58,406 nucleotides of DNA, from IMG/VR virus record IMGVR_UViG_3300044998_000622, positions 1 to 58,406 of that record; one strand, 5' to 3'. Positions 1,834 through 43,864 of the stretch are shown in pieces. Under the pieces are notes generated by a model that was not told where the DNA came from, searched no databases, and saw only the letters and a program-made list of their open reading frames with translations. The position numbers and the translations under genes are program-made. Position 1 is the first letter of the stretch. The number at the start of each line of letters is the position of its first letter. Source of the stretch: a virus.

Positions 1834-2205
1834 CGTCAGCTGAGAGCTGAGCTGAGGACTCCCACGCCGAGGGAGGGAGCCGAGGGAGCGCCCCCCCCTC
1901 CCCCCCAAACGCCGCTAGCGCGTGGTCTGGGGGGCTGGGGAGCTCCTCGGCTCGCTCCGCGGCTCACGCCTCGGTCGGTCGCCTTCGGTCGGCCCACGGC
2001 GCCCTGATGCGCCGCGCGGCCAGGATGGCTGCTGGATGCCCGGCCGGCAACGTCAACGTTCAGCGTCCGTCGGCGCCGGATCGAGCTTGCGGTTTCGCGC
2101 GGAATCGGGCGCTCAGCAGCCGGTAGCAGAAACTTCTTGCGGTCGCTCGGGATGTAAGCCACTGTCCGGAACGCCGCAGGGTGCGGCAGCCAAGGAGAGA
2201 CCCAG
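1834..2205. other. Largest noncoding gap: G/C tracts, likely end of late and start of early transcription
   Basis: No credible gene was found in these 372 bases. A G-rich stretch (GGGAGGG at 1871-1877) is followed by eight C, one T and seven C (1891-1906), then GGGGGG (1929-1934) and GGGG (1937-1940). GGGAGGG can pair with CCCTCCC at 1896-1902, and the C run can pair instead with the later G run, giving alternative hairpins. Short direct repeats of CGGTCGG lie near 1972-1994. The right end holds a promoter candidate and the leader of the first early gene. It separates lysis genes from early genes, so a terminator, control region or replication origin is possible. Confidence 0.5.
2137..2165 (+). 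promoter_or_regulatory. Early promoter candidate
   Basis: TTGCGG (2137-2142) and CACTGT (2160-2165) are 17 bp apart. The -35 is preceded by GCCGGTAGCAGAAAC (2119-2133), the same 15 bases that precede the promoter at 4465. The -10 is weak. Confidence 0.4.
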
Positions 2206-2236
2206 ATGACCCAGACCCAGACCGCTCTTGCCCAGA
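2186..2236 (+). repeat. 51-bp duplicated RBS and gene start, copy 1
   Basis: Bases 2186-2236 are identical to 4518-4568. The block holds the AAGGAG ribosome binding site, the ATG and the first ten codons, so both genes begin MTQTQTALAQ. The rest of the two proteins is unrelated. Confidence 0.95.
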
Positions 2237-3453
2237 CCCAGACCCTCGTGGGGACCCTGAACACGATCGCCGCCCAGCTGGAGGCCGGCGAGATCGGGCC
2301 GAAGGCCGCGCTCGACGCCGCGAACGAGGCGCTCTCCGCGACCGAGTTCACGATCAAGCGGCAGAAGAACGCCGCGGCGCTCGTGAAGCGCCTGCGCGCC
2401 GAGGCCGCCGCCTTGGGCGACACGCTCCCGGCCGCCGCTCCCCCCGCCCCCGCCGAGGACCCGGACAACGAGATCGCCGCGGCCGAGGATCTGCTCGCGG
2501 CGGATCCCGAGTACTGGGTCTGGCTCGATCAGGTCGAGGCGGCCGACCGCGCCGCCTTCGAGCAGGCGGACGCCGAGCGGTTCGAGCGCGGTGTCGGCGG
2601 CGAACCTGGCCCCGTGGCGGCCTCGGGCGCCTCGCAGGCGCCCAAGCCCCCGGCAGAGCCCCCGGCGGGCGCCACGGCGGCGCCTGCGGGCACGACGCCG
2701 CCCTCCGGCAAGGCGGCGCGCCTGGCGGCCCTGCTCGCCGGCGAGAAGCCGCCGGCCCCGGCCCCGAGCGCGCGGGCGCGGACCTCGGTGACCTTCCGCG
2801 AGGTCGGCGGCGAGATTGAGGTCTTCCCGCGGCGCATCGTGCGCCGAGCCCTTGCGGAACTCTCGCCTTTCACGCGAGAGGTCCTCGCGCAGGTCGCGAG
2901 CTCCTACTCGGGCACCGAGGTCCGCGCTGACGATGCCGGGTTCGTGGACGCGGTCCTCGACGCCCTGCACAACAAGCCATGCCCGGCGAGCATCCGGGAG
3001 GCGATCCGGGCCGACCGCGAGCGCGCGGCAAGCGCAGCCAGCCTCGCGGCTCCGAAGGGCGGCGCGCCGCGCAAGGGAGCGCGCCTCGGGGTGATCGTGA
3101 ACGCCCTCCGGACCGGAGCCACGGTGCGTGAGATCTGCGAGATGATGGCGGCGAAGTTCCCGACATACTCGGCGCGCCACGGCGGAGGACCGGCGACCGC
3201 CGACAGCTTCGACGGGTTCGTGCGCGCCGCGATCTCGCATATGGACAAGGGCCTGCACTTCTCGGTCTCTGCCCGCACGAAGGGCAAGATCCTCCGCGGC
3301 AAGAACGAGGCCGGCGTGACGGTCTACCGGATCGATCCCTCGGTGGACCTGGGCGACGTGGTCGCGACGGACGACCGGGAAGTCGTCGTCCTCGCGGACG
3401 CGGCTCTCGTGGCCGAGGCCGCGGCGGGCGACGAGAAGCAGGCGGCGGAGTGA
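2206..3453 (+). CDS. Early protein of unknown function, 415 aa
   Basis: I do not recognise the family. The start ATG is 8 nt after AAGGAGAG. Residues 1-110 look helical and acidic, about 135-195 form an Ala/Pro/Gly-rich linker, and residues about 196-400 look folded, including a basic patch near APKGGAPRKGARLG that could touch nucleic acid. The first ten residues (MTQTQTALAQ) are shared with the AAA ATPase at 4538. It is the first gene of the early block that includes an AAA+ ATPase and a VWA protein, so it may be a partner of that pair. Confidence 0.7.
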   Translation: MTQTQTALAQTQTLVGTLNTIAAQLEAGEIGPKAALDAANEALSATEFTIKRQKNAAALVKRLRAEAAALGDTLPAAAPPAPAEDPDNEIAAAEDLLAADPEYWVWLDQVEAADRAAFEQADAERFERGVGGEPGPVAASGASQAPKPPAEPPAGATAAPAGTTPPSGKAARLAALLAGEKPPAPAPSARARTSVTFREVGGEIEVFPRRIVRRALAELSPFTREVLAQVASSYSGTEVRADDAGFVDAVLDALHNKPCPASIREAIRADRERAASAASLAAPKGGAPRKGARLGVIVNALRTGATVREICEMMAAKFPTYSARHGGGPATADSFDGFVRAAISHMDKGLHFSVSARTKGKILRGKNEAGVTVYRIDPSVDLGDVVATDDREVVVLADAALVAEAAAGDEKQAAE

Positions 3454-3461
3454 GAAACTGG

Positions 3462-3491
3462 TTGCGCGGAACGCGGTAGCAGGTAAAGGAT
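3462..3491 (+). promoter_or_regulatory. Early promoter candidate
   Basis: TTGCGC at 3462-3467 is followed 16-17 bp later by TAAAGGAT (3484-3491). The preceding AGAAAC-N3 matches the promoters at 2137 and 4465. Confidence 0.4.
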
Positions 3492-3528
3492 ACCGGGCCC
3501 GATGGACGGGCAGGCAAGGAGAGTCATC

Positions 3529-4419
3529 ATGGAATCGGTCGAAACCATCAAGAACAGGCACGGGATCGGGGCGGTCGTGTTCTGGGCCCTGCACGACGTG
3601 AGGGTCCGGCGCGCGGACATGCGCGCCACGTTCGAGGCGCAGGGCCTCGGCGCCGCCGTGCAGCGCGATCCATCCCCGAGCGCCTGCCTCACCCGCGCGG
3701 TCTCCCGCGCCGCGGTCGGGCGCCCCGCGGTCCGCTTCGAGCGTGTCCGCGACGACGGCGCGGTCGCGACCGAGGCGCTCTCGGTCCTCGCGACCGACGC
3801 GGCGACCGAGACCGCGACTTACACGCAGATCGGAACGATCTCGGTCGACAAGCAGACCGGGGCCGTCGCGTTCTCGAAGAACGGCGACGACTACGGCGCG
3901 CTCGAAGCGGCCGCGGGCGAGTACCACGAGGCCCGGGAATGGTGCTCGACCGCGGACCTCGGCGCCGCGCTCAAGATCGCGATGTACGGGCGCGCGCGCA
4001 ACCTGCTCCTCGGCGCCGTGAACCTCCGGGGCCAGTCGGGCGGCGTCTACTATGTCCGCGAGTCGCGCATGGGCGCGGTCGAGGCGCTCGCGGCTTGGAT
4101 CGACGCGAGCGGGTTCGGGAAGCTCACGATCCTCCGGATCACGGAGGAGGGCAGCGGCCAGGTTGGCAATGCGGCGCGCAGTACGATCCTGGAGCGGATC
4201 GCCGAGGTGACCAGCGGCCTCGACGAGCTCGTGGAGAAGATCAACGGCGCCAGCGAGGACGAGCTCGACCGGATCCTGGAGCCTACGCTCGCTCGCTTCG
4301 ACCTGATCAGCCAGCAGGTCGATCTCTACGCGGACGTCCTCGGCCTCGCCCGCGAGGAGCTCATCGGCAAGGCGGACCTCGCAAAGAAGGCGATCCTCTC
4401 CCGCTGCGTGGCGGCGTGA
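3529..4419 (+). CDS. Early protein of unknown function upstream of MoxR-like ATPase
   Basis: 296 aa. The ATG at 3529 is chosen because AAGGAG (3516-3521) precedes it at good distance; an ATG at 3502 lacks this. The N-terminal two thirds look like a mixed alpha/beta domain (SVDKQTGAVAFSKNGDDYGAL), the last third is helical (ITSGL..ELVEKIN..EDELDRIL). Its place directly before an AAA+ and VWA pair suggests it works with them. I recall uncharacterised phage proteins of this kind next to MoxR/VWA genes, but cannot confirm a family. Confidence 0.7.
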   Translation: MESVETIKNRHGIGAVVFWALHDVRVRRADMRATFEAQGLGAAVQRDPSPSACLTRAVSRAAVGRPAVRFERVRDDGAVATEALSVLATDAATETATYTQIGTISVDKQTGAVAFSKNGDDYGALEAAAGEYHEAREWCSTADLGAALKIAMYGRARNLLLGAVNLRGQSGGVYYVRESRMGAVEALAAWIDASGFGKLTILRITEEGSGQVGNAARSTILERIAEVTSGLDELVEKINGASEDELDRILEPTLARFDLISQQVDLYADVLGLAREELIGKADLAKKAILSRCVAA

Positions 4420-4464
4420 TGGGCGGCCGCGACCACGACTTCGAATGCCGGTAGCAGAAACCAG

Positions 4465-4494
4465 TTGCACCCCGGACGGTGCGCTGGTACAGAT
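4465..4494 (+). promoter_or_regulatory. Early promoter, best example of its type
   Basis: TTGCAC (4465-4470), 17 bp, TACAGAT (4488-4494). GCCGGTAGCAGAAAC (4447-4461) precedes it, as at 2119-2133. It lies between two coding regions and would give a leader of about 40 nt for the AAA ATPase gene. Confidence 0.6.
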
Positions 4495-4517
4495 CGGGGA
4501 CATGGCGCCACGCAGGC

Positions 4518-4568
4518 GCAGCCAAGGAGAGACCCAGATGACCCAGACCCAGACCGCTCTTGCCCAGA
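4518..4568 (+). repeat. 51-bp duplicated RBS and gene start, copy 2
   Basis: Identical to 2186-2236; carries the AAGGAG site, ATG and first ten codons of the AAA ATPase gene. Confidence 0.95.
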
Positions 4569-5683
4569 TCCTCAACGCCGAGGCCAGCGTGAACGCGCGC
4601 CTCGTGGGCCGCGCCGCGGAGGTCCGCGGCCTCTTCGTCGCGGCGCTCGCCCGCGAGCACGTCCTCCTCCTTGGTCCCCCGGGCACGGGAAAGTCGATGC
4701 TCGCGCGCGCCTTCGCGGAGACGATCTCAGGATGCGCCTACTTCGAGTGGCTCCTCTCGAAGTTCTCGACCCCCGAGGAGCTCTTCGGCCCGATCTCCTT
4801 CTCGGCCTTGAAGGCCGACCGCTTCGCCCGGGTGACGCGCGGCAAGCTTCCCGAGGCGCACGTCGCGTTCCTGGACGAGATCTTCAAGGCCAACAGCGCG
4901 GTCCTGAACACGCTCCTGCCCGTGATCAACGAGCGCGTGTTCCACGACGACGGCGGCACGAAGCGCTGCCCGCTGATGACGACGGTGGCGGCCTCCAACG
5001 AGCTCCCCGAGGGGCCCGAGCTCGGCGCCCTGTGGGACCGGTTCATGGTCCGGTTCTGGATCGGCTACAGCGCGACCCCGGACGACTTTCGCGCGATCCT
5101 CCGCGGCGCGCGCACGCAGCAGGCGCCTGTGATCGCGCTCGACATGAGCGTCTGGACCGAGGCGCAGGCCTCGGTCGACGCCATGCCGGTCACCGATGAG
5201 GTGTTCGACGCCTTGTTCGCCCTCAAGCGGAAGCTCCAGGACGACGGGATCACGATCTCAGACCGACGCTGGGTCAAGGCGACCCGCTTGCTCGCGGCGA
5301 CCGCGTGGCTCGACGGGGCCACCGAGGTCGGGACGGATCACTTCGAGATCCTCGCGGCCTCGCTTTGGAACGAGCCCTCGCAGGCCGGCACCGTGCGGAC
5401 GCACGTGCAGAGCTTCGTGTCGGCCGAGATCGCGACCGCGCAGAAGATCGTGGACGGGATCGGCGAGATCATCGCGAAGCTCCCGGCGCAGCACGACCCG
5501 GCTTTCGACACCAAGATCCTCCCCGCGAACCGCGAACTGAAAAAGGCGATCCTCCGGCTCGACGAGCTCGCGGCGAGCGCGAAGTCGACCTCGGCCAAGG
5601 GCAAGATCATGGCGCTCCGGAACGACGTGGCAGCGCGCGGGCGCGAACTGGTGCAGGCGGCCATGGACGGGCTCAAGAGCTAG
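4538..5683 (+). CDS. MoxR-type AAA+ ATPase
   Basis: 381 aa. Walker A GPPGTGKS begins near residue 46, Walker B AFLDEIFK near 111, and a sensor-1-like Asn in AASNELPEG near 152, so all ATPase elements look intact. The WLLSKFSTPEELFGPIS stretch fits the MoxR/RavA clade. The C-terminal part is helical. MoxR ATPases act with VWA-domain partners as chaperones or metal-insertion/remodelling machines; a 512-aa VWA protein is encoded just downstream. The first ten residues are copied from, or shared with, the gene at 2206. The target in this phage is unknown. Confidence 0.88.
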   Translation: MTQTQTALAQILNAEASVNARLVGRAAEVRGLFVAALAREHVLLLGPPGTGKSMLARAFAETISGCAYFEWLLSKFSTPEELFGPISFSALKADRFARVTRGKLPEAHVAFLDEIFKANSAVLNTLLPVINERVFHDDGGTKRCPLMTTVAASNELPEGPELGALWDRFMVRFWIGYSATPDDFRAILRGARTQQAPVIALDMSVWTEAQASVDAMPVTDEVFDALFALKRKLQDDGITISDRRWVKATRLLAATAWLDGATEVGTDHFEILAASLWNEPSQAGTVRTHVQSFVSAEIATAQKIVDGIGEIIAKLPAQHDPAFDTKILPANRELKKAILRLDELAASAKSTSAKGKIMALRNDVAARGRELVQAAMDGLKS

Positions 5684-5693
5684 TCCCAGGGCT

Positions 5694-5733
5694 TTCCGGG
5701 CGGGAGGCGATTCCTGTTGCCTCCCGCCCGGAA
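5694..5733 (+). terminator. Perfect 15-bp hairpin after the AAA ATPase gene
   Basis: TTCCGGGCGGGAGGC (5694-5708) and GCCTCCCGCCCGGAA (5719-5733) are exact reverse complements with a 10-nt loop. It starts 10 bases after the stop codon. No T run follows, so it may be an attenuator or mRNA end stabiliser rather than a classic terminator. It overlaps a -35 candidate (TTGCCT, 5717-5722). Confidence 0.6.
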
Positions 5734-5746
5734 CCATGCGACAAGA
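5717..5746 (+). promoter_or_regulatory. Early promoter candidate before the VWA gene
   Basis: TTGCCT (5717-5722) with GACAAG/ACAAGA 17-18 bp downstream (5740-5746). The -35 sits inside the right arm of the 15-bp hairpin. Confidence 0.35.
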
Positions 5747-5778
5747 TGAGGGCGCCACCGAGGCGCAGACAAGGAGCG

Positions 5779-7317
5779 ATGATGACGGCGGAAGAGATCA
5801 AGGCGAGCGCGAAGGCGGCGATCCACAAGGCGACGCTGCGGCGCCAGATTGAGAACCTGGAGCAGGGCGCCGACGCGGCGGTCCGGGTTGGCGCCTGGGT
5901 GCGGACGCTGGCCGCCGAGGAGGCGAAGGCCGGCGGCGTGTTCACGGACGCGCTCGACCTCAAGCCCGAGGCGGCGACGTGGGGCTCCCTGGCCCGCGAG
6001 ATCTTCGGGAGCCTCTACGGGCTCGGGACCGAGGCGGTCGAGGCCGAAAAGGCGCCCGAGGGCGCCGGCTGGGTGCGAGAGCTCCTCGGGCAGGCCGAGT
6101 CGCTCCCTGAGTGGCAGGAGCTCCAGGCGCGCGCGGCGGGCGACGCCTGGGCCTCGGGCCTCGCGGCGGCCGGCGCCATGGAGGCGCTCGCCCCGCTGGC
6201 GCAGGACCTCCCGAAGAATGACGCGCAGGAGCTCAAGGAGCAGATCGACGCGCTCCAAGAGCTCATCGCCGAGTCGGGCAAGAGGCCCGGCGCCCGCACG
6301 GCGCGGCGCCTCACGAACCTCCGCAAGGAGCACCAGCGGGCGGTCAAGGACGACGCCAACGCGACGGCGCTGCTCCGCTCGAAAGCGGCTAAGGTCCGCT
6401 CGGTCATGCGCGGCGCGGCTGCGGCGGCGACCGCGGCGATCGACGAGCAGCGCGCGGCCGAGGAGGGGCTGGGGATCGCCCCGGGCCAGAGCCAGGGCCT
6501 CGCGATGCGCGTGCAGGGCGCCACGGCGGCCGCCCGCGAGGTCCTGAGGACGAACACCCAGCTGCGAAAGATCGCGGTCCTGGCGGGGCGGTTCCGGCGC
6601 CGCGCGGCGCAGAAGCAGGCGGAGAAGGCTCGCGGCGGCGCGCACGAGGTGGCCGACGTGACGACGGGCGCCGACCTCGCGCGCCTCCTCCCGAGCGAAG
6701 CGGTTCTGGCCGGCGACGAGGACGGCGAGGCGGTCCTCTTCCGGCGGCTCACCGAGCGCGCCGCCATGAACTACGAGCTTCGCTCGCCGGAGACGAAGAC
6801 CGAGGGGCCGATCGTGATCTGCATCGACGAGAGCGGCTCGATGCGCGGCGAGCGGGACGTCTGGGCGAAGGCCGCCTGCCTTGCGATTCTGGAGATCGCG
6901 GCTCGCCAGAACCGAGCCTTCGCGATCCTGCACTTCGATGACGGAGTCACCCGGACGGACGTGTTCCGCGCCCCGCGCTCGGTGCGCTGGGAGGCGATCG
7001 CCGAGTGTTTGACTTGGTTCTCGGGCGGCGGGACGGACATTTCGGATGCCATGGCGGCGGGGATCGACCTGATCGCGAAGGAGCCCGCGTACCGCAAGGC
7101 GGACCTGGTCGTGATCACGGACGGAGAGGACTACAGCGACTCGATCCGCGACGCGGTGAAAGCGGCGAAGGCCAAAGGGATCTCGACCCACTGGGTTGGG
7201 ATCGACTGCGATGACACCGAGAGCGACTTTGGGCTCGCGACGGTGGCGGTCGTGACGACGGCCGCGATCAAGGGACAGGACGTGAAGGCGATCGACGGCG
7301 TCCTCGGCGCCATCTGA
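5779..7317 (+). CDS. VWA-domain protein, MoxR partner
   Basis: 512 aa (ATG at 5779; a second ATG at 5782 is also possible; AAGGAG at 5771). Residues about 1-330 are helical and Ala/Glu-rich with coiled-coil character. The von Willebrand A domain occupies about 345-512 with an intact metal site: DESGS at 350-354, GGGTDIS near 419, and ITDGED near 447. The pairing with the MoxR ATPase upstream is the standard MoxR/VWA arrangement; in cellular versions (RavA-ViaA, CbbQ-CbbO, NorQ-NorD) the VWA protein brings the substrate. Its substrate here is not visible. Confidence 0.88.
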   Translation: MMTAEEIKASAKAAIHKATLRRQIENLEQGADAAVRVGAWVRTLAAEEAKAGGVFTDALDLKPEAATWGSLAREIFGSLYGLGTEAVEAEKAPEGAGWVRELLGQAESLPEWQELQARAAGDAWASGLAAAGAMEALAPLAQDLPKNDAQELKEQIDALQELIAESGKRPGARTARRLTNLRKEHQRAVKDDANATALLRSKAAKVRSVMRGAAAAATAAIDEQRAAEEGLGIAPGQSQGLAMRVQGATAAAREVLRTNTQLRKIAVLAGRFRRRAAQKQAEKARGGAHEVADVTTGADLARLLPSEAVLAGDEDGEAVLFRRLTERAAMNYELRSPETKTEGPIVICIDESGSMRGERDVWAKAACLAILEIAARQNRAFAILHFDDGVTRTDVFRAPRSVRWEAIAECLTWFSGGGTDISDAMAAGIDLIAKEPAYRKADLVVITDGEDYSDSIRDAVKAAKAKGISTHWVGIDCDDTESDFGLATVAVVTTAAIKGQDVKAIDGVLGAI

Positions 7318-7330
7318 CGGAGGAGGGTCC

Positions 7331-7501
7331 ATGGAGAAGCACTTGGAAGAGCTCGGGGTGATCGCGGTCGTGGGAACGCGGTTCGATCAGGTCTGGACCG
7401 TGTCGATCGCGACGGTGACGACGTGCTGCAAGGGGGGCGGTCCTCGGTTCGAGGACGCGCTTGCCGACGCGCTCGCAAAGCTCGCCGCGAGCTTGTCGTG
7501 A
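7331..7501 (+). CDS. Small protein, 56 aa
   Basis: ATG at 7331 follows GGAGGAGGG with good spacing. The product starts MEKHLEELGVIAVVGTRF and holds a central Cys pair (TTCCKGG). The TGA overlaps the GTG of the nuclease gene (GTGA at 7498-7501), which supports it being translated. No family recognised. Confidence 0.6.
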   Translation: MEKHLEELGVIAVVGTRFDQVWTVSIATVTTCCKGGGPRFEDALADALAKLAASLS

Positions 7502-8643
7502 AGCGGCGCCTCCCGGTCACGACGATCACGGCGTCGGAGCTCACTGCCTGGCGCGCGTGCCCCCACCGGTGGGGCCTGCGCTATGTGGACGGGCTCGTGC
7601 CGAGGGTGGGCGCCAGACCGCTGCGGGTCGGGACGGCCATCCACGCCGGCCTGGCGGCGGCGTACCGGCTGGCGCGGGGTACGCCCGACACGGCTGCCGA
7701 ACGGCGCGTGGCGGCCAAGGTCGCGGCGCGGGAGGCCATCCTCGCGGCGCACCAGGAGGCGATCGCCAGCCTCCAGGTCGAGGAGCTCCTGGACGAGTCG
7801 GATGAGGTGGCGCGCCTGGCGACGTGGGTCTCGGAGCACTTCGTCGACCGCTTCGCCGAGGACTGGGAGCACCTGGACCCGATCGGAATCGAGCTTCCCT
7901 TCGAGCTCCAGCTGCGCGACGTGCTCGGGCGCCGTGTCCCCGGGCTCCAGTTTGCTGGCGTGATGGACCTGCTCGCGTTTGACCGGCGCGTCGGGGACGT
8001 GATCGTGATGGATCACAAGACCACGAGCGGGTCGATCGACGGGCTCGACCGGAAGATCGAGCTCGACCCGCAGATGGCGGGCTACGTCTGGGCCGCCCGG
8101 GAGCTCGCCGCCATGGGCGCGCTGCAGCGCGCGGAGGGCTGGGTCGTGACGCCGGACGCAGTGAGCGGGCGGGTCGCGTTCAACGTCATCAGAAAGGCAA
8201 TCCCGCGCGCGCCGAAGCTGAACAAGGACGGCCGGGTCTCCACGGCGGCGATCGACACCCTGCCGGAGGTGTACGCGGACGCTCTCGACGAGCAGGAGCG
8301 CCGTGGGATCCCAGTGACCGAGGAGCAACGGTCGCTGCTCGATCGCCTCCGGAACAAGGGAGAAAGCTACATCGCAAGGCGCGAGTTCTGGCTCTCCACG
8401 TCGGACGTGGAGCGCTGGCGGACGGAGCTCTTCGTGGAGGCGAGTAGGATCAGGCAAGCGGAACGCGATCCCGCGTGTCGGACGCGGAACCCGCTGGCGT
8501 GTTCGGTGGCATCGGCTCCTGTCTGCGCGTACCGTCAGATCTGCCTCGATCCCGACGCCGCGGAGTTTCGCGAGGGGTTCGAGCGCAGGCCGAGGCGAGA
8601 AGAGGTGGAACGAGCGAAGGCGGAGGTGAGCGATGGATCGTGA
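7498..8643 (+). CDS. PD-(D/E)XK exonuclease, Cas4/RecB-like, with probable Fe-S cluster
   Basis: 381 aa from a GTG that overlaps the previous stop. Nuclease core: GVMDLLAFD near residue 157 and VMDHKTT near 171 give the D...DxK motif; QMAGYVWAARE supplies the following helix (QxxxY). A Cys at position 21 (AWRACPHRW) and a C-terminal group CRTRNPLACS...CAYRQICL match the four-cysteine 4Fe-4S arrangement of Cas4 and AddB nucleases. It sits just before a Sak4-like ATPase and an SSB-like protein, so it probably resects DNA ends for phage recombination. Confidence 0.85.
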   Translation: MKRRLPVTTITASELTAWRACPHRWGLRYVDGLVPRVGARPLRVGTAIHAGLAAAYRLARGTPDTAAERRVAAKVAAREAILAAHQEAIASLQVEELLDESDEVARLATWVSEHFVDRFAEDWEHLDPIGIELPFELQLRDVLGRRVPGLQFAGVMDLLAFDRRVGDVIVMDHKTTSGSIDGLDRKIELDPQMAGYVWAARELAAMGALQRAEGWVVTPDAVSGRVAFNVIRKAIPRAPKLNKDGRVSTAAIDTLPEVYADALDEQERRGIPVTEEQRSLLDRLRNKGESYIARREFWLSTSDVERWRTELFVEASRIRQAERDPACRTRNPLACSVASAPVCAYRQICLDPDAAEFREGFERRPRREEVERAKAEVSDGS

Positions 8644-9013: not shown

Positions 9014-9144
9014 TCGACCCGTGGGGTTCACCGATGGACCCCGACCTCGGCGAGCGCGTGCTGCGCGCCCTTCGAGGTCGTGAGCCATCGACGGCGCACG
9101 ACGATCTCTGGAGTCGGGGGTCGCGTTCAGGTAGCGAGGAAACA

Positions 9145-9978
9145 ATGCTCAGAATCGACGACAGGGCGGACGAGGATCACTTCAAGGCGCTGATCTACGG
9201 GGCTCCTGGCACCGGCAAGACCAGTTTCGGTGTGAGCGCGCCAGATCCGCTCATCTTGCTCTCGGAGAGGCAAGGGATGCGGCACATCCGCGACGCCGCG
9301 AGCCGCATGGGGCGTCCCGTGCCACCTGTGCTCTACATGCAGAGCCTGGAGGACTACCGGTCGGTCATCCGCACGCTGCGCGCGCCGCGCGCAGCGGACG
9401 GGAGCTTCAGGGTCGTCGGCAAGGACGGCGCCGAGATCCTCGCGCTCGACCGGTGGCCGCAGACGATCGTGATCGACTCGCTCACGGATGCATGCCGGCT
9501 CGTGGACGAGGAGGTGAAGCGCGACGCGCCGCCGCAGAAGGCGAGCGACGGTCTCGACAAGGTCACGGAGCGGCACTGGGCCGCTCTCCGGGACCGGTGC
9601 GAGAAGCTCATCCGGGCCTTCCGCGACTCGCCGACGCACGTCGTGTTCCTCGCGCACGTCGACGACCGCTTGCAGGGCGAGGGCGACGAGGCGCAGCGCT
9701 GGGTCGGTCCCTCGCTGATCATGCGCGCGCTGCCGAGCTTCGTAATCGGCGCCGTGAACGTGGCGGCGATCACGACGCGCACGATCGGCAAGCGCGACGA
9801 GACCGACGAGGACGGTGAGCGGAGGATCGAGTATGGGATCGTCACGGTGGGCCCCGGCTTCATGCAATTGAAGCCGCACCGTCCTCTCCGGGACAGAGAA
9901 GTCCCGGACTTCAGCGACTGGATCGCGCGCATTCGGCAGAGCGAGAGCGCGCGAAAGGCTGAAGGCAAGGAGGGGTGA
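9145..9978 (+). CDS. Sak4-like RecA-fold ATPase (single-strand annealing/recombination)
   Basis: 277 aa. Walker A GAPGTGKTS begins near residue 19, and TIVIDSLTDA fits Walker B. THVVFLAHVDDR and the C-terminal FMQLKPHRPL follow the pattern of phage nucleotide-binding proteins of the Sak4/AAA_24 type, which promote annealing with SSB. Start: ATG 9145 with GAGGAA 5-10 nt before it; an in-frame ATG at 9034 would add 37 residues but lacks an SD. The next gene encodes an SSB-like protein. Confidence 0.85.
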   Translation: MLRIDDRADEDHFKALIYGAPGTGKTSFGVSAPDPLILLSERQGMRHIRDAASRMGRPVPPVLYMQSLEDYRSVIRTLRAPRAADGSFRVVGKDGAEILALDRWPQTIVIDSLTDACRLVDEEVKRDAPPQKASDGLDKVTERHWAALRDRCEKLIRAFRDSPTHVVFLAHVDDRLQGEGDEAQRWVGPSLIMRALPSFVIGAVNVAAITTRTIGKRDETDEDGERRIEYGIVTVGPGFMQLKPHRPLRDREVPDFSDWIARIRQSESARKAEGKEG

Positions 9979-9981
9979 GCG

Positions 9982-10551
9982 ATGGCCATCTTCGATCCGA
10001 GCAAGGGCAGAAACGGAGGCACCGAAGGAAGTGCCGCGGAACTTCTCCCTGCAGGGGAGTATCTCGTCGCGATCGTGTGGCTGCAGCTCAGGACCGCACG
10101 ATCCGGCGCGTCGTTCGCACGGGTGAAGGTACAAGTGTGCAACGGTCCCATGGCCGGCAAGTGCTTCTTCACCGCGCTCTCGCTCGACTTGAGCAAGAAC
10201 GGATCCAGGGCGCGGTTGGAGATGCTTTGCCGGAGTGCTGGGATCACGGAGCCATTCGACGTGGACTCGGAGAAGCAAGTCGCGCGGGCGGTCAAGAACC
10301 GCCCGTTCAAGGCGCGCATCGAGCAGAGGGATGAAGTGGATAGGCGAGACGGCACGACGAGACGCGTGAACGAAATCGCGCGGTACGTCGTGAAGCTCAC
10401 TCCCGATGAGCAGCGTGCAGCGGCCAACTGGGTTCTCGATCGCGAGGAGGCCGCGTTATCCGGAGTGACTACGCGCGATGACGACGACAAGTACGATGAC
10501 GACGACGAGTACGCGGTCAGCGCGAGCCAGGACGACGACATCCCCTTCTGA
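9982..10551 (+). CDS. SSB-like single-stranded DNA-binding protein (DUF669-like)
   Basis: 189 aa. Residues about 20-150 look like a beta-rich domain of the DUF669 type (LLPAGEYLVAIVWLQL, FFTALSLD, LCRSAGI). The tail is a run of Asp ending in exactly DDDIPF, the same end as classical SSB proteins, where it recruits partner enzymes. Strong SD (AGGAGG). Neighbours (Sak4-like ATPase and Cas4-like nuclease) fit a phage recombination set in which this protein coats the resected strand. Confidence 0.85.
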   Translation: MAIFDPSKGRNGGTEGSAAELLPAGEYLVAIVWLQLRTARSGASFARVKVQVCNGPMAGKCFFTALSLDLSKNGSRARLEMLCRSAGITEPFDVDSEKQVARAVKNRPFKARIEQRDEVDRRDGTTRRVNEIARYVVKLTPDEQRAAANWVLDREEAALSGVTTRDDDDKYDDDDEYAVSASQDDDIPF

Positions 10552-33380: not shown

Positions 33381-34763
33381 ATGTCGATCGCAAATCTCGG
33401 CCTCGCCCCCGGCCTTGTCAACATCATCCAGGACCGGACGCTGATGCGTCAGTTCCACGACGCCCTCTTCCCGCGCCTGCTCTACCGGAGCGAGGCCATG
33501 GCGGAGAAGTGGGACGCCAACATCGGCCAGCGGCAGGTCTTCACTCGCAAGGGCCTCATGGCTGTCGACCTTGCTCCGATCACTCCGGGCTCGGACCCGA
33601 GCATGGGTACCTACCAGACGGAGCAGTGGGAGGTCGAGGCCACGCAGCGCGGCAAGGCGATCGACACTCACATGCCCACCAGCCACGTCGCGCTTGCGCC
33701 GACGTTCCTGGCGGACGTGGTCGTGCTCGGTATGAACGCCGGCCAGACCATGAACCGCTTGCCGCGGAACAAGCTCTTCGCGGCGTACCTCGGCGGCGAG
33801 ACCGTCAACACGGCGGTCGTGGCGGCCGGCGTGTTCGCGGTCCCGGTGGCATCGATCAACGGCTTCACCGAGGTCCTGGCGAACGGGCGCTTGCAGCCCG
33901 TCAGCCCGGCGAACCCGCTCGCGGTGACCTTCACCGGCGGCGAGCCGCCGAACACGGTCGTCGCGGCAGTGCCGAACGACCCGGCGAACCCGCTCGGTCC
34001 CGGCGTGCTCACGCTCGGTGCCGCGACGACCGTCGGCCTCGCGCTCCGGAGCGCGGTCCGTGCGGCGACCCGCTCGCGGATCACCCGCGTCGGCGGCGGC
34101 GCGACGGTGGACTCTCTCGTGGCGAGCTCTGTGCTCACCCTCCAGACCGTGATCGACACGGTGGCGCGCCTTCGATCGAACAACGTGCCTCCGACGTCGG
34201 ATGGCTTCTACCACGTCCACGTCACGCCCGAGGGTGAGGCCGAGCTCTTCGCGGACAATGCCTTCCAGCGACTGTTCCAGTCGCTGCCCGAGAACGCGGT
34301 CTACCGCGACCTGGGCATCGGCCAGCTCGTCGGCTGCCGGTTCTACCGGAACACGGAGAACCCCGACGAAACGAACTCGGGGCCGCTGTCCGACACGTCG
34401 GGTGGCTCCGGCAGCGCGCGCTGCGCGGGCGAGATCGGCGGCGAGGTGGTCAACCAGAGCGGGCTCCCGATCAAGCGTGCGCTCGTGCTCGGCGGCGGTG
34501 CGCTGTACGAGAAGTACATCGACGAGTCGGCCTTCATCACGGAGGCCGGCGTGATGGGCAAGATCGGCGAGTTCTCGGTGGTGAACGGCGGCGTCCAGGT
34601 GATGACGCAGCGGATCCGCTACATCCTCCGCGCCCCACAGGACCGCCTTCAGCAGATCGTCAGCCAGGCCTGGTCCTGGTCGGGCGACTTCGCGGTCCCC
34701 TCGGACGCGCTCATCGGCAACGCCGCGCGGTTCAAGCGCGCCGCGGTCATCGAGCACGCCTGA
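33381..34763 (+). CDS. Major capsid protein
   Basis: 460 aa, SD GGAGG. Pattern LMRQFHDALFPRLLYRSEAMAEKWDANIGQRQVFTRKG at the N terminus, then DGFYHVHVTPEGEAELFADNAFQRLFQS and IGQLVGCRFYRNTENP, resembles the N4 gp56/P22-like branch of HK97-fold coat proteins. Its place after the scaffold gene and its length support the call. A weak hairpin follows the stop. Confidence 0.85.
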   Translation: MSIANLGLAPGLVNIIQDRTLMRQFHDALFPRLLYRSEAMAEKWDANIGQRQVFTRKGLMAVDLAPITPGSDPSMGTYQTEQWEVEATQRGKAIDTHMPTSHVALAPTFLADVVVLGMNAGQTMNRLPRNKLFAAYLGGETVNTAVVAAGVFAVPVASINGFTEVLANGRLQPVSPANPLAVTFTGGEPPNTVVAAVPNDPANPLGPGVLTLGAATTVGLALRSAVRAATRSRITRVGGGATVDSLVASSVLTLQTVIDTVARLRSNNVPPTSDGFYHVHVTPEGEAELFADNAFQRLFQSLPENAVYRDLGIGQLVGCRFYRNTENPDETNSGPLSDTSGGSGSARCAGEIGGEVVNQSGLPIKRALVLGGGALYEKYIDESAFITEAGVMGKIGEFSVVNGGVQVMTQRIRYILRAPQDRLQQIVSQAWSWSGDFAVPSDALIGNAARFKRAAVIEHA

Positions 34764-42520: not shown

Positions 42521-43864
42521 ATGGCGACGAAGAGGCGAACGAAGGCCGCGCAGCCGGCGGCTCCGTCCGAGCGGCTACTGCGGTCCCTGGAGGCGCTGCG
42601 GGCGCAGGGGGTCCCGTTCCGGCCGATCTCTGAGCTCCGGAGGCGGACAAACAACCCCCGCGACAACGCGAAAGCGGTCGGAGCGATCGTGGAGTCGCTC
42701 CAGGAGTTCGGCTGGACGACGCCGCTTCTGATGGACGCGGCGGGCGAGGTCGAGGCGGGCGACACGCGGTTCATGGCGGCGGAGCGGCTCGGGCTGGCCG
42801 AGGTCCCGATCCTCCAGACCGACCACGACCCGGAGCTCGCGCGCCGCTACGTCGTGGCGGACAACAGGCTGGGGGAGATCGCTACCTGGGACGGGCTCAA
42901 GCTCGCCGAGATCCTCGACGGGTTCACACCGGATCAGGTCGAGGTGACCGGATTCTCCGTGGAGGAGGTCGAGGCCATGGCGGCGCAGGAGCTCGCCGAG
43001 GCCGAGAAGCGACTGGAGCGATCGGCGCCCGCCTCTGTTGACGAGGCTCTGGCGGACGCCGACGTGCCGCAGCGAGTCGATCGCGGGCAGGTCTGGGAGT
43101 GCGGTCGCCACCTGGTCATCTGTGGCGACGCACGGCGCGTGGCGCCGACAGGCGATCCGTGTGCGATGCTTTTCACCGACCCACCGTACGGCGTGAACTA
43201 CCAGAGCCGAGGCGGCTCGAACAACAGCAGAGGGGCGAAGCACGCGAAGATCAAGAACGATGACATGAGCCCCTCTGAGCTGCGTGTGTTTCTGGAGGAG
43301 GCGTTTCGGGCGGCGCGTGCCTGGCTTGCGCCTGGCGCAACCGCGTACGTGTTCCACGGCGACCAGCGTCCAGGGATCCGTCTCGCATTCGAGGGCGCCT
43401 TCCTCAGCGCAGGATTCGAACTGCTCGGCACCCTTGTCTGGGTGAAGCCGACCGCGACCATGGGATGGCAGGACTACCGCAACGGCTACGAGCCAATCCT
43501 CTACGGAGAGGTGCCAGGCGGCAAGAGGCACAAGGTCTATGACCGCACGCAGTCGACCGTGTGGGACGAGCGCAAGGATGCTGCGTCGGCGTACATGCAC
43601 CCGACGCAGAAGCCGACGAGCCTGGCGATGCGCGCCATGCGAAATTCGACCTCTCCGGGCGACCGGGTGATCGACGTCTTTGGCGGATCGGGCTCGACGC
43701 TGGTGGCTGCTGAGGTCATGAAGCGCAGCGCGGTCTCGATCGAACTGGAGCCGCGGTACTGCGACGTCGCGATCGAGCGGTGGCGCCGGATCTCCGGCGT
43801 CGATCCGAAGCTGGTCGGAATGGCAACGGAGCGCGGCGCCGCTGCGGAAAGGCAAGGTGAGTGA
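42521..43864 (+). CDS. ParB-like domain fused to DNA methyltransferase
   Basis: 447 aa, SD GAGGC. Residues about 30-180: ParB/sulfiredoxin-like domain (RPISELRRRTNNPRDNAKAVGAIVESLQEFGW, VEAGDTRFMAAERLGLAEVPI, VVADNRL). Residues about 185-430: methylase with TDPPYGV at 219-225 and, later, FGGSGSTLVAAE near 387, i.e. the beta-class order (catalytic motif before SAM motif). All motifs intact. It modifies adenine or cytosine N4; which cannot be told. It interrupts the tail gene order between tube and tail chaperone. Confidence 0.85.
   Translation: MATKRRTKAAQPAAPSERLLRSLEALRAQGVPFRPISELRRRTNNPRDNAKAVGAIVESLQEFGWTTPLLMDAAGEVEAGDTRFMAAERLGLAEVPILQTDHDPELARRYVVADNRLGEIATWDGLKLAEILDGFTPDQVEVTGFSVEEVEAMAAQELAEAEKRLERSAPASVDEALADADVPQRVDRGQVWECGRHLVICGDARRVAPTGDPCAMLFTDPPYGVNYQSRGGSNNSRGAKHAKIKNDDMSPSELRVFLEEAFRAARAWLAPGATAYVFHGDQRPGIRLAFEGAFLSAGFELLGTLVWVKPTATMGWQDYRNGYEPILYGEVPGGKRHKVYDRTQSTVWDERKDAASAYMHPTQKPTSLAMRAMRNSTSPGDRVIDVFGGSGSTLVAAEVMKRSAVSIELEPRYCDVAIERWRRISGVDPKLVGMATERGAAAERQGE

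What the first reader, a model, noticed from the sequence alone, without database searches (positions are those of the whole stretch)
2206..7317. Early operon built around a MoxR AAA+ ATPase and a VWA protein
Four large genes (two unknown, MoxR, VWA) take up about 9% of the genome in the early position, each with its own promoter-like block. MoxR/VWA pairs remodel or activate protein complexes in cells; a phage-encoded set suggests takeover or maturation of a host or phage complex. The two unknown proteins may be the adaptor and substrate.
Basis: partly seen in the sequence, partly recalled or inferred. Interest (0 to 1): 0.6.

Follow-up and report, generated by a model that had tools for sequence, protein, structure and literature searches.

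The report
Phage MoxR–VWA–DUF6744 remodelling module
This uncultured phage carries neighbouring genes for an ATP-driven protein-remodelling machine (a MoxR ATPase and its VWA partner) plus a third protein of unknown function (DUF6744), and the same three-gene set recurs in dozens of very different phages and mobile elements, which makes DUF6744 the best candidate for the machine's dedicated client or adaptor.

Summary
The operon is real: four intact genes at 2206-7317. MoxR is a RavA/bpMoxR-type AAA+ ATPase with complete motifs. The VWA protein has an intact MIDAS site and a NorD-like C-terminal half. The 296-aa 'unknown' is a divergent member of Pfam DUF6744 (leave-one-out HMM 171.6 bits, E 2.7e-50). 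I ran it, and linkage holds for three of the four genes: of 56 distinct viral MoxR loci, 53 carry VWA and 42 carry DUF6744 nearby, nearly always on the same strand. The set also occurs in bacterial and archaeal contigs. The 415-aa protein has no detectable relative and is not part of the conserved set. MoxR-VWA pairs in phages are already published; I found no paper that mentions DUF6744. In the window's own clade the triad is followed by exonuclease, Sak4 and SSB genes, which favours a role at the recombination or replication machinery. Codon usage as adapted as the major capsid gene's leaves virion assembly open. 'Early' and 'promoter-like blocks' are not established, although three genes share an upstream motif and two share a 51-nt leader. 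Best reading: a MoxR-VWA ternary system with a new third component; target unknown.

The parts
2206..3453 (+). gene A, 415-aa protein of unknown function; not part of the conserved module
   Evidence: ORF with SD AAGGAG; no Pfam, PHROG, PADLOC or PDB sequence match; no relative in phages, IMG/VR or the fetched loci
3529..4419 (+). gene B, 296-aa DUF6744-family protein, third component of the module
   Evidence: Pfam DUF6744 sub-threshold alone (E 0.0034); leave-one-out family HMM 171.6 bits, E 2.7e-50, shuffled best E 2.7; AlphaFold2 model pLDDT 93.9
4538..5683 (+). MoxR AAA+ ATPase, RavA/bpMoxR type, 381 aa, without room for a RavA-like C-terminal region
   Evidence: PF20030 1.5e-53, PF17868 lid; phrog_19600 3e-78; RavA 3nbx E 4e-56 over aa 12-314; Walker A/B, sensor and arginine residues conserved
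5779..7317 (+). VWA protein, about 512 aa: variable helical N-terminal half, conserved pre-VWA segment, VWA domain with intact MIDAS (start 5779 or 5782)
   Evidence: VWA_2 and VWA_CoxE; phrog_24053; MIDAS residues invariant or nearly so in 46 phage homologues; model matches NorD VWA 9qh8 over residues 223-503, Z 16.7, 210 aligned
2128..2140 (+). AGAAACNNNTTGC element upstream of gene A
   Evidence: exact match; post hoc motif
3453..3465 (+). AGAAACNNNTTGC element upstream of gene B
   Evidence: exact match; post hoc motif
4456..4468 (+). AGAAACNNNTTGC element upstream of moxR
   Evidence: exact match; post hoc motif
2186..2236 (+). duplicated leader copy 1 (SD plus first codons, MTQTQTALAQ)
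   Evidence: 51 nt identical to 4518-4568
4518..4568 (+). duplicated leader copy 2, in front of and within the start of moxR
5694..5733 (+). perfect 15-bp stem, 10-nt loop hairpin between moxR and vwa; no U tract after it
   Evidence: MFE -53 kcal/mol for 5684-5785, z -4.28; sequence
7498..8643 (+). PD-(D/E)XK exonuclease, follows the module in the window's clade
   Evidence: PF12705 2e-24, phrog_1218 4e-36; same order in relatives
9142..9978 (+). Sak4-like recombinase/annealing protein (exact start not determined)
   Evidence: phrog_124 6e-21; same order in relatives
9982..10551 (+). ssDNA-binding protein (DUF669)
   Evidence: PF05037 1e-8, phrog_378 3e-8

Best explanation
A phage-encoded MoxR-VWA ternary remodelling system whose dedicated third component is the DUF6744 protein. 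Proposed working: MoxR forms an ATP-driven hexamer; the VWA protein docks its conserved pre-VWA/VWA half in the ring, as NorD does in NorQ, and presents its variable helical N-terminal half and MIDAS face; DUF6744 is the client that is remodelled, or the adaptor that brings the client. In this phage clade the likeliest ultimate target is the phage's recombination/replication apparatus (exonuclease-Sak4-SSB) encoded just downstream. Shown: gene content, intact motifs, family membership, conserved linkage, confident folds. Inferred: hexamer, finger-in-pore docking, DUF6744 contact, and the target.
For: MoxR and VWA families with intact catalytic and MIDAS residues. VWA model matches NorD of the NorQ-NorD complex over 210 residues; finger-in-pore docking is described for NorQD and presumed general by its authors (PMC13036017). 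DUF6744 sits near MoxR in 42 of 56 distinct viral MoxR loci, VWA in 53. In 30 contigs of at least 40 kb where DUF6744 was found in the fetched flank, the fetched part averages 21% of the contig, and 39 of 40 DUF6744 genes are on the MoxR strand; among 13 viral contigs searched whole because the flank had none, one more DUF6744 turned up. The set spans a Moorella phage, 35 of 80 bacterial/archaeal MoxR loci and, dispersed and with a different AAA/VWA, haloarchaeal virus HVTV-1. DUF6744-MoxR-VWA-PDDEXK-Sak4-SSB order in close relatives. Recognised flanking genes are mostly DNA metabolism.
Against: No physical interaction was tested. A 10-member phage subclade without DUF6744 exists, and DUF6744 occurs in L070 and L072 without this MoxR type, so the three are not strictly obligate. 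The recombination link is clear only in the window's clade and in part of the bacterial loci. Most flanking genes have no known function. Codon adaptation equal to capsid genes fits virion assembly at least as well.
Confidence: 0.6

Rival explanations
1. Virion-assembly chaperone: the MoxR-VWA pair remodels or matures a structural (tail/baseplate) complex, with DUF6744 as an assembly factor.
For: Proposed for jumbo-phage MoxR-vWA pairs, citing the two-tailed archaeal virus system (PMC7824862). Module genes have capsid-like codon adaptation and strong SDs (Mann-Whitney p 0.002). Tail-like genes lie upstream in some relatives (my reading of the sequences), and baseplate genes lie at the far end of this record.
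Against: Only one terminase and no capsid or tail family among the listed flanking matches (each list shows the 25 commonest families only). The set occurs in bacterial loci beside Rad52, ParB, SSB or DnaN-like genes.
Confidence: 0.3
2. Conflict system: the module blocks a host defence or excludes rival phages, as in bacterial MoxR-vWA ternary conflict systems.
For: bpMoxR family name and the ternary conflict systems described with other third components. Some Paenibacillus-type loci sit beside DUF4258 and GmrSD-like genes.
Against: No effector domain found in the four proteins; PADLOC gives only P-loop-level matches to MoxR. The third component differs from VMAP, iSTAND, FtsH and beta-propeller.
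Confidence: 0.25
3. Metal-cofactor chaperone for a phage metalloenzyme such as ribonucleotide reductase, as NorQD and CoxDE act on metalloenzymes.
For: MoxR-VWA pairs often serve metalloenzymes (NorQD, CoxDE). DUF6744 lies near ribonucleotide reductase in MTATph1 and HVTV-1, and near a weak NRDD and a radical SAM match in L070.
Against: Only three such cases; no such gene recognised in this window among the proteins scanned.
Confidence: 0.1
4. Accidental acquisition of a host ravA-viaA-like pair with no dedicated partner.
For: RavA is the closest solved structure; several database 'phage' hits are really host ravA-viaA.
Against: The window's MoxR clusters with other IMG/VR loci, not with the RavA group, and linkage to DUF6744 is kept at low sequence identity.
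Confidence: 0.03

Closest known systems
RavA-ViaA (Escherichia coli)
   Same: MoxR AAA+ core and lid align over about 300 residues; adjacent VWA partner of the same kind
   Different: Phage MoxR is 381 aa against about 500 for the RavA chains, so RavA beyond residue about 324 is not matched; separate branch in the tree; extra DUF6744 gene
NorQ-NorD and CbbQ-CbbO activases
   Same: VWA protein's conserved half matches NorD VWA (9qh8) over 210 residues, Z 16.7, rmsd 3.8
   Different: No nitric oxide reductase or Rubisco gene recognised here; the linked conserved gene is DUF6744
MoxR-vWA ternary conflict systems (VMAP, iSTAND, FtsH, beta-propeller; Kaur et al. 2020, PMC7159879)
   Same: MoxR plus vWA plus a defining third protein
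   Different: Third protein is DUF6744; the module is in phages and mobile-looking loci; no effector domains detected
MoxR-vWA pairs of jumbo phages, 0305phi8-36, Hardycor1/HVTV-1, and Acidianus two-tailed virus; MoxR of cyanophage S-CREM1
   Same: Virus-encoded MoxR or AAA protein, mostly with a vWA or second-subunit partner
   Different: In the passages read no DUF6744 partner is noted; the jumbo-phage vWA is fused to a metallopeptidase, which was not found here

Membership tests
MoxR AAA+ ATPases (bpMoxR/RavA type) | P-loop, Walker B, sensor 1, arginine finger and AAA lid | tested here: met
   PF20030, PF07728 and PF17868 above cut-offs; motif residues invariant in alignment
RavA | RavA C-terminal region beyond the AAA lid (about residues 325-500) | tested here: not met
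   sequence match ends at RavA residue 324 and phage residue 314 of 381; only about 67 residues remain
RavA | phylogenetic position inside the RavA branch | tested here: not met
   RavA-like rows form a separate 100%-supported branch; window groups with L012-L016 and L044 at SH-aLRT 94 (quick tree)
VWA partner of MoxR (CoxE/ViaA/NorD type) | VWA domain with MIDAS D-x-S-x-S, T, D | tested here: met
   D349, S351, S353, D447 invariant, T418 nearly so, in 46 sequences
VWA partner of MoxR (CoxE/ViaA/NorD type) | finger inserted in the MoxR pore | tested here: inconclusive
   conserved pre-VWA segment matches the NorD VWA chain structurally; no complex was modelled
Pfam DUF6744 | significant match to the family profile | tested here: met
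   Pfam's own profile alone 16.8 bits against cut-off 27, so not met by that profile; leave-one-out HMM of linked relatives 171.6 bits; relatives L001, L003 and HVTV1_25 pass Pfam's cut-off
MoxR-vWA ternary conflict system | one of the known third components (VMAP, iSTAND, FtsH, beta-propeller) and effector domains | tested here: not met
   third gene is DUF6744; no such domains among Pfam matches
Jumbo-phage MoxR-vWA | metallopeptidase fused to the vWA N-terminus | tested here: not met
   no peptidase family match in the VWA protein; N-terminal half is helical in the model

The most novel reading that the evidence does not exclude
DUF6744-MoxR-VWA is a distinct, widespread ternary remodelling system of tailed phages and mobile elements of bacteria and archaea, with DUF6744 (no convincing match found among solved folds) as its dedicated client or adaptor, acting on the phage DNA recombination/replication machinery.
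Probability: 0.3. Interest if true: 0.75.

Novelty: new variant of a known kind. Interest (0 to 1): 0.55.

Why it matters
MoxR-VWA machines are common but few have a known client. A third gene that stays with the pair across very divergent phages is a ready-made candidate, turning an unknown Pfam family and an unexplained phage ATPase into one testable complex.

Tried and rejected
Gene A searches: nothing in Pfam, PHROGs, PADLOC, PDB sequences, phages, IMG/VR or relatives. Single-sequence IMG/VR scans with VWA and gene B found nothing. Campylobacter A11a/A18a and some Salmonella/Escherichia 'phage' records were rejected as evidence: L004 shows ravA-viaA flanked by what read as host genes. A conserved MoxR-VWA intergenic hairpin was sought in relatives and not found as a common element. 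Ribonucleotide-reductase link: only three cases. No close DNA relative in the phage collection.

Full report
What is there. The four ORFs are intact and correctly placed. Starts behind AAGGAG Shine-Dalgarno sequences are 2206, 3529, 4538 and 5779 or 5782. Gene A (415 aa) has no family match. Gene B (296 aa) matches Pfam DUF6744 below cut-off. Gene C is a MoxR AAA+ ATPase (PF20030 1.5e-53, PHROG 19600 3e-78). Gene D is a VWA protein. The rest of the record is a tailed phage with terminase, portal, head, tape-measure and baseplate genes. Directly downstream lie a PD-(D/E)XK exonuclease, a Sak4-like protein and an SSB.

Anatomy of the proteins. MoxR aligns to RavA over residues 12-314 and then stops; about 67 residues remain. 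Its P-loop, Walker B, sensor and arginine residues are kept. The VWA protein keeps a full MIDAS across 46 phage homologues. Its model (pLDDT 84) has a helical N-terminal half and a VWA domain, and matches NorD of the NorQ-NorD complex over 210 residues (Z 16.7, rmsd 3.8). Many other VWA proteins score as well or better over the VWA domain alone; NorD is singled out because the match reaches into the segment before the domain. Gene B's model is confident (pLDDT 93.9, pTM 0.87). It has no convincing match to a solved structure but matches predicted phage proteins, including one of haloarchaeal virus HVTV-1 that Pfam confirms as DUF6744.

Linkage test. A three-sequence MoxR alignment found 58 IMG/VR loci. 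HMMs built from the first three loci were run on all ORFs of the fetched loci. With near-copies and non-phage-looking records removed, 42 of 56 viral MoxR loci have DUF6744 and 53 have VWA. A leave-one-out HMM finds gene B at 171.6 bits; shuffled ORFs give nothing better than E 2.7. An HMM from only two sequences already finds 52 ORFs at E<1e-3, gene B among them at 9e-7. The commonest order is DUF6744-MoxR-VWA (25 of 61 loci), and 12 more have DUF6744 after VWA. In the 30 contigs of at least 40 kb that have it in the flank, the fetched part averages 21% of the contig. That calculation assumes random placement, which phage genomes with functional clustering do not obey, and applies only to loci where it was found; among the 15 records without it that were searched whole, one more turned up.

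Spread. Moorella phage MTATph1 has the triad with a strong DUF6744 match (206.6 bits). Thirty-five of 80 bacterial and archaeal MoxR loci have DUF6744 nearby, among them Myxococcota, Bacillota and an Archaeoglobales contig. Some flanks carry integrase, Rad52, ParB, SSB, DnaN-like or restriction-like genes (names are partly my reading of sequences). Whether these are prophages, other mobile elements or resident operons was not settled. A quick maximum-likelihood MoxR tree puts the window with L012-L016 and L044 (SH-aLRT 94) and RavA-like sequences on a separate branch; deeper forks are weak.

What it may act on. In the window's clade the module is followed by exonuclease, Sak4 and SSB in the same order in most members (L012 has DUF6744 after the exonuclease). 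Among 149 flanking ORFs of viral loci the recognised families are mostly DNA metabolism, with one terminase (only the top 25 families are listed). Against a purely early, replicative role, the four genes have codon adaptation of 0.71-0.77, like the capsid and portal genes and above the recombination genes (rank test p 0.002). The reference set was chosen by me from structural genes, and relatives show the effect only weakly. The target therefore stays open: recombination/replication about 0.4, virion assembly 0.3, conflict 0.25 in my estimate. These are rival targets of the same machine and so overlap with the confidence given for the ternary module itself.

Regulation. No sigma-70-like promoter was found. 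Genes A, B and MoxR share AGAAACNNNTTGC 60-80 nt upstream, and A and MoxR share 51 identical nt over SD and first codons, a recent duplication by inference. A perfect 15-bp hairpin before VWA lacks a U tract; a role in setting the MoxR:VWA ratio is a guess.

Known or new. Phage and archaeal-virus MoxR-vWA pairs are published (PMC7824862, PMC7911831, PMC2147016; MoxR alone PMC9964418), and ternary MoxR-vWA systems with other third components are published (PMC7159879). No open-access paper in the library names DUF6744; subscription papers were not searchable. I class it as a new variant of a known kind.

Noticed in passing
L034, L040, L046, L048, L049, L052: Viral-contig MoxR-VWA loci without DUF6744 form a subclade; six of the scanned flanking ORFs of the viral set match reverse transcriptase. 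I assume, without mapping each match, that they belong to this group; it may be a diversity-generating retroelement context.
   Followed up: partly
window 5694-5733: Perfect 15-bp stem hairpin between moxR and vwa without a U tract.
   Followed up: partly
window 2186-2236 and 4518-4568: 51-nt identical block covering SD and first codons of two unrelated genes (gene A and moxR).
   Followed up: partly
L003 4816-8290 (MTATph1); L154 5957-10966 (HVTV-1); L070 5902-7819: DUF6744 genes near ribonucleotide reductase genes (weak NRDD match in L070).
   Followed up: partly
L004 (Campylobacter phage A11a record): Record deposited as phage appears to hold host DNA with ravA-viaA beside Kup- and AsnA-like ORFs (read from sequence).
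   Followed up: partly
L089, L102, L112, L117 and other Paenibacillus-type loci: DUF4258 proteins and GmrSD_N-like proteins recur next to the DUF6744-MoxR-VWA set.
   Followed up: no
window 42521-43864: Protein with ParB-like and DNA methyltransferase PHROG matches placed among head and tail genes.
   Followed up: no
window 33381-34763: Major head protein's nearest named relatives are Streptomyces phage Kromp (36%) and Komagataeibacter phages phiKX1/2 (32%).
   Followed up: no
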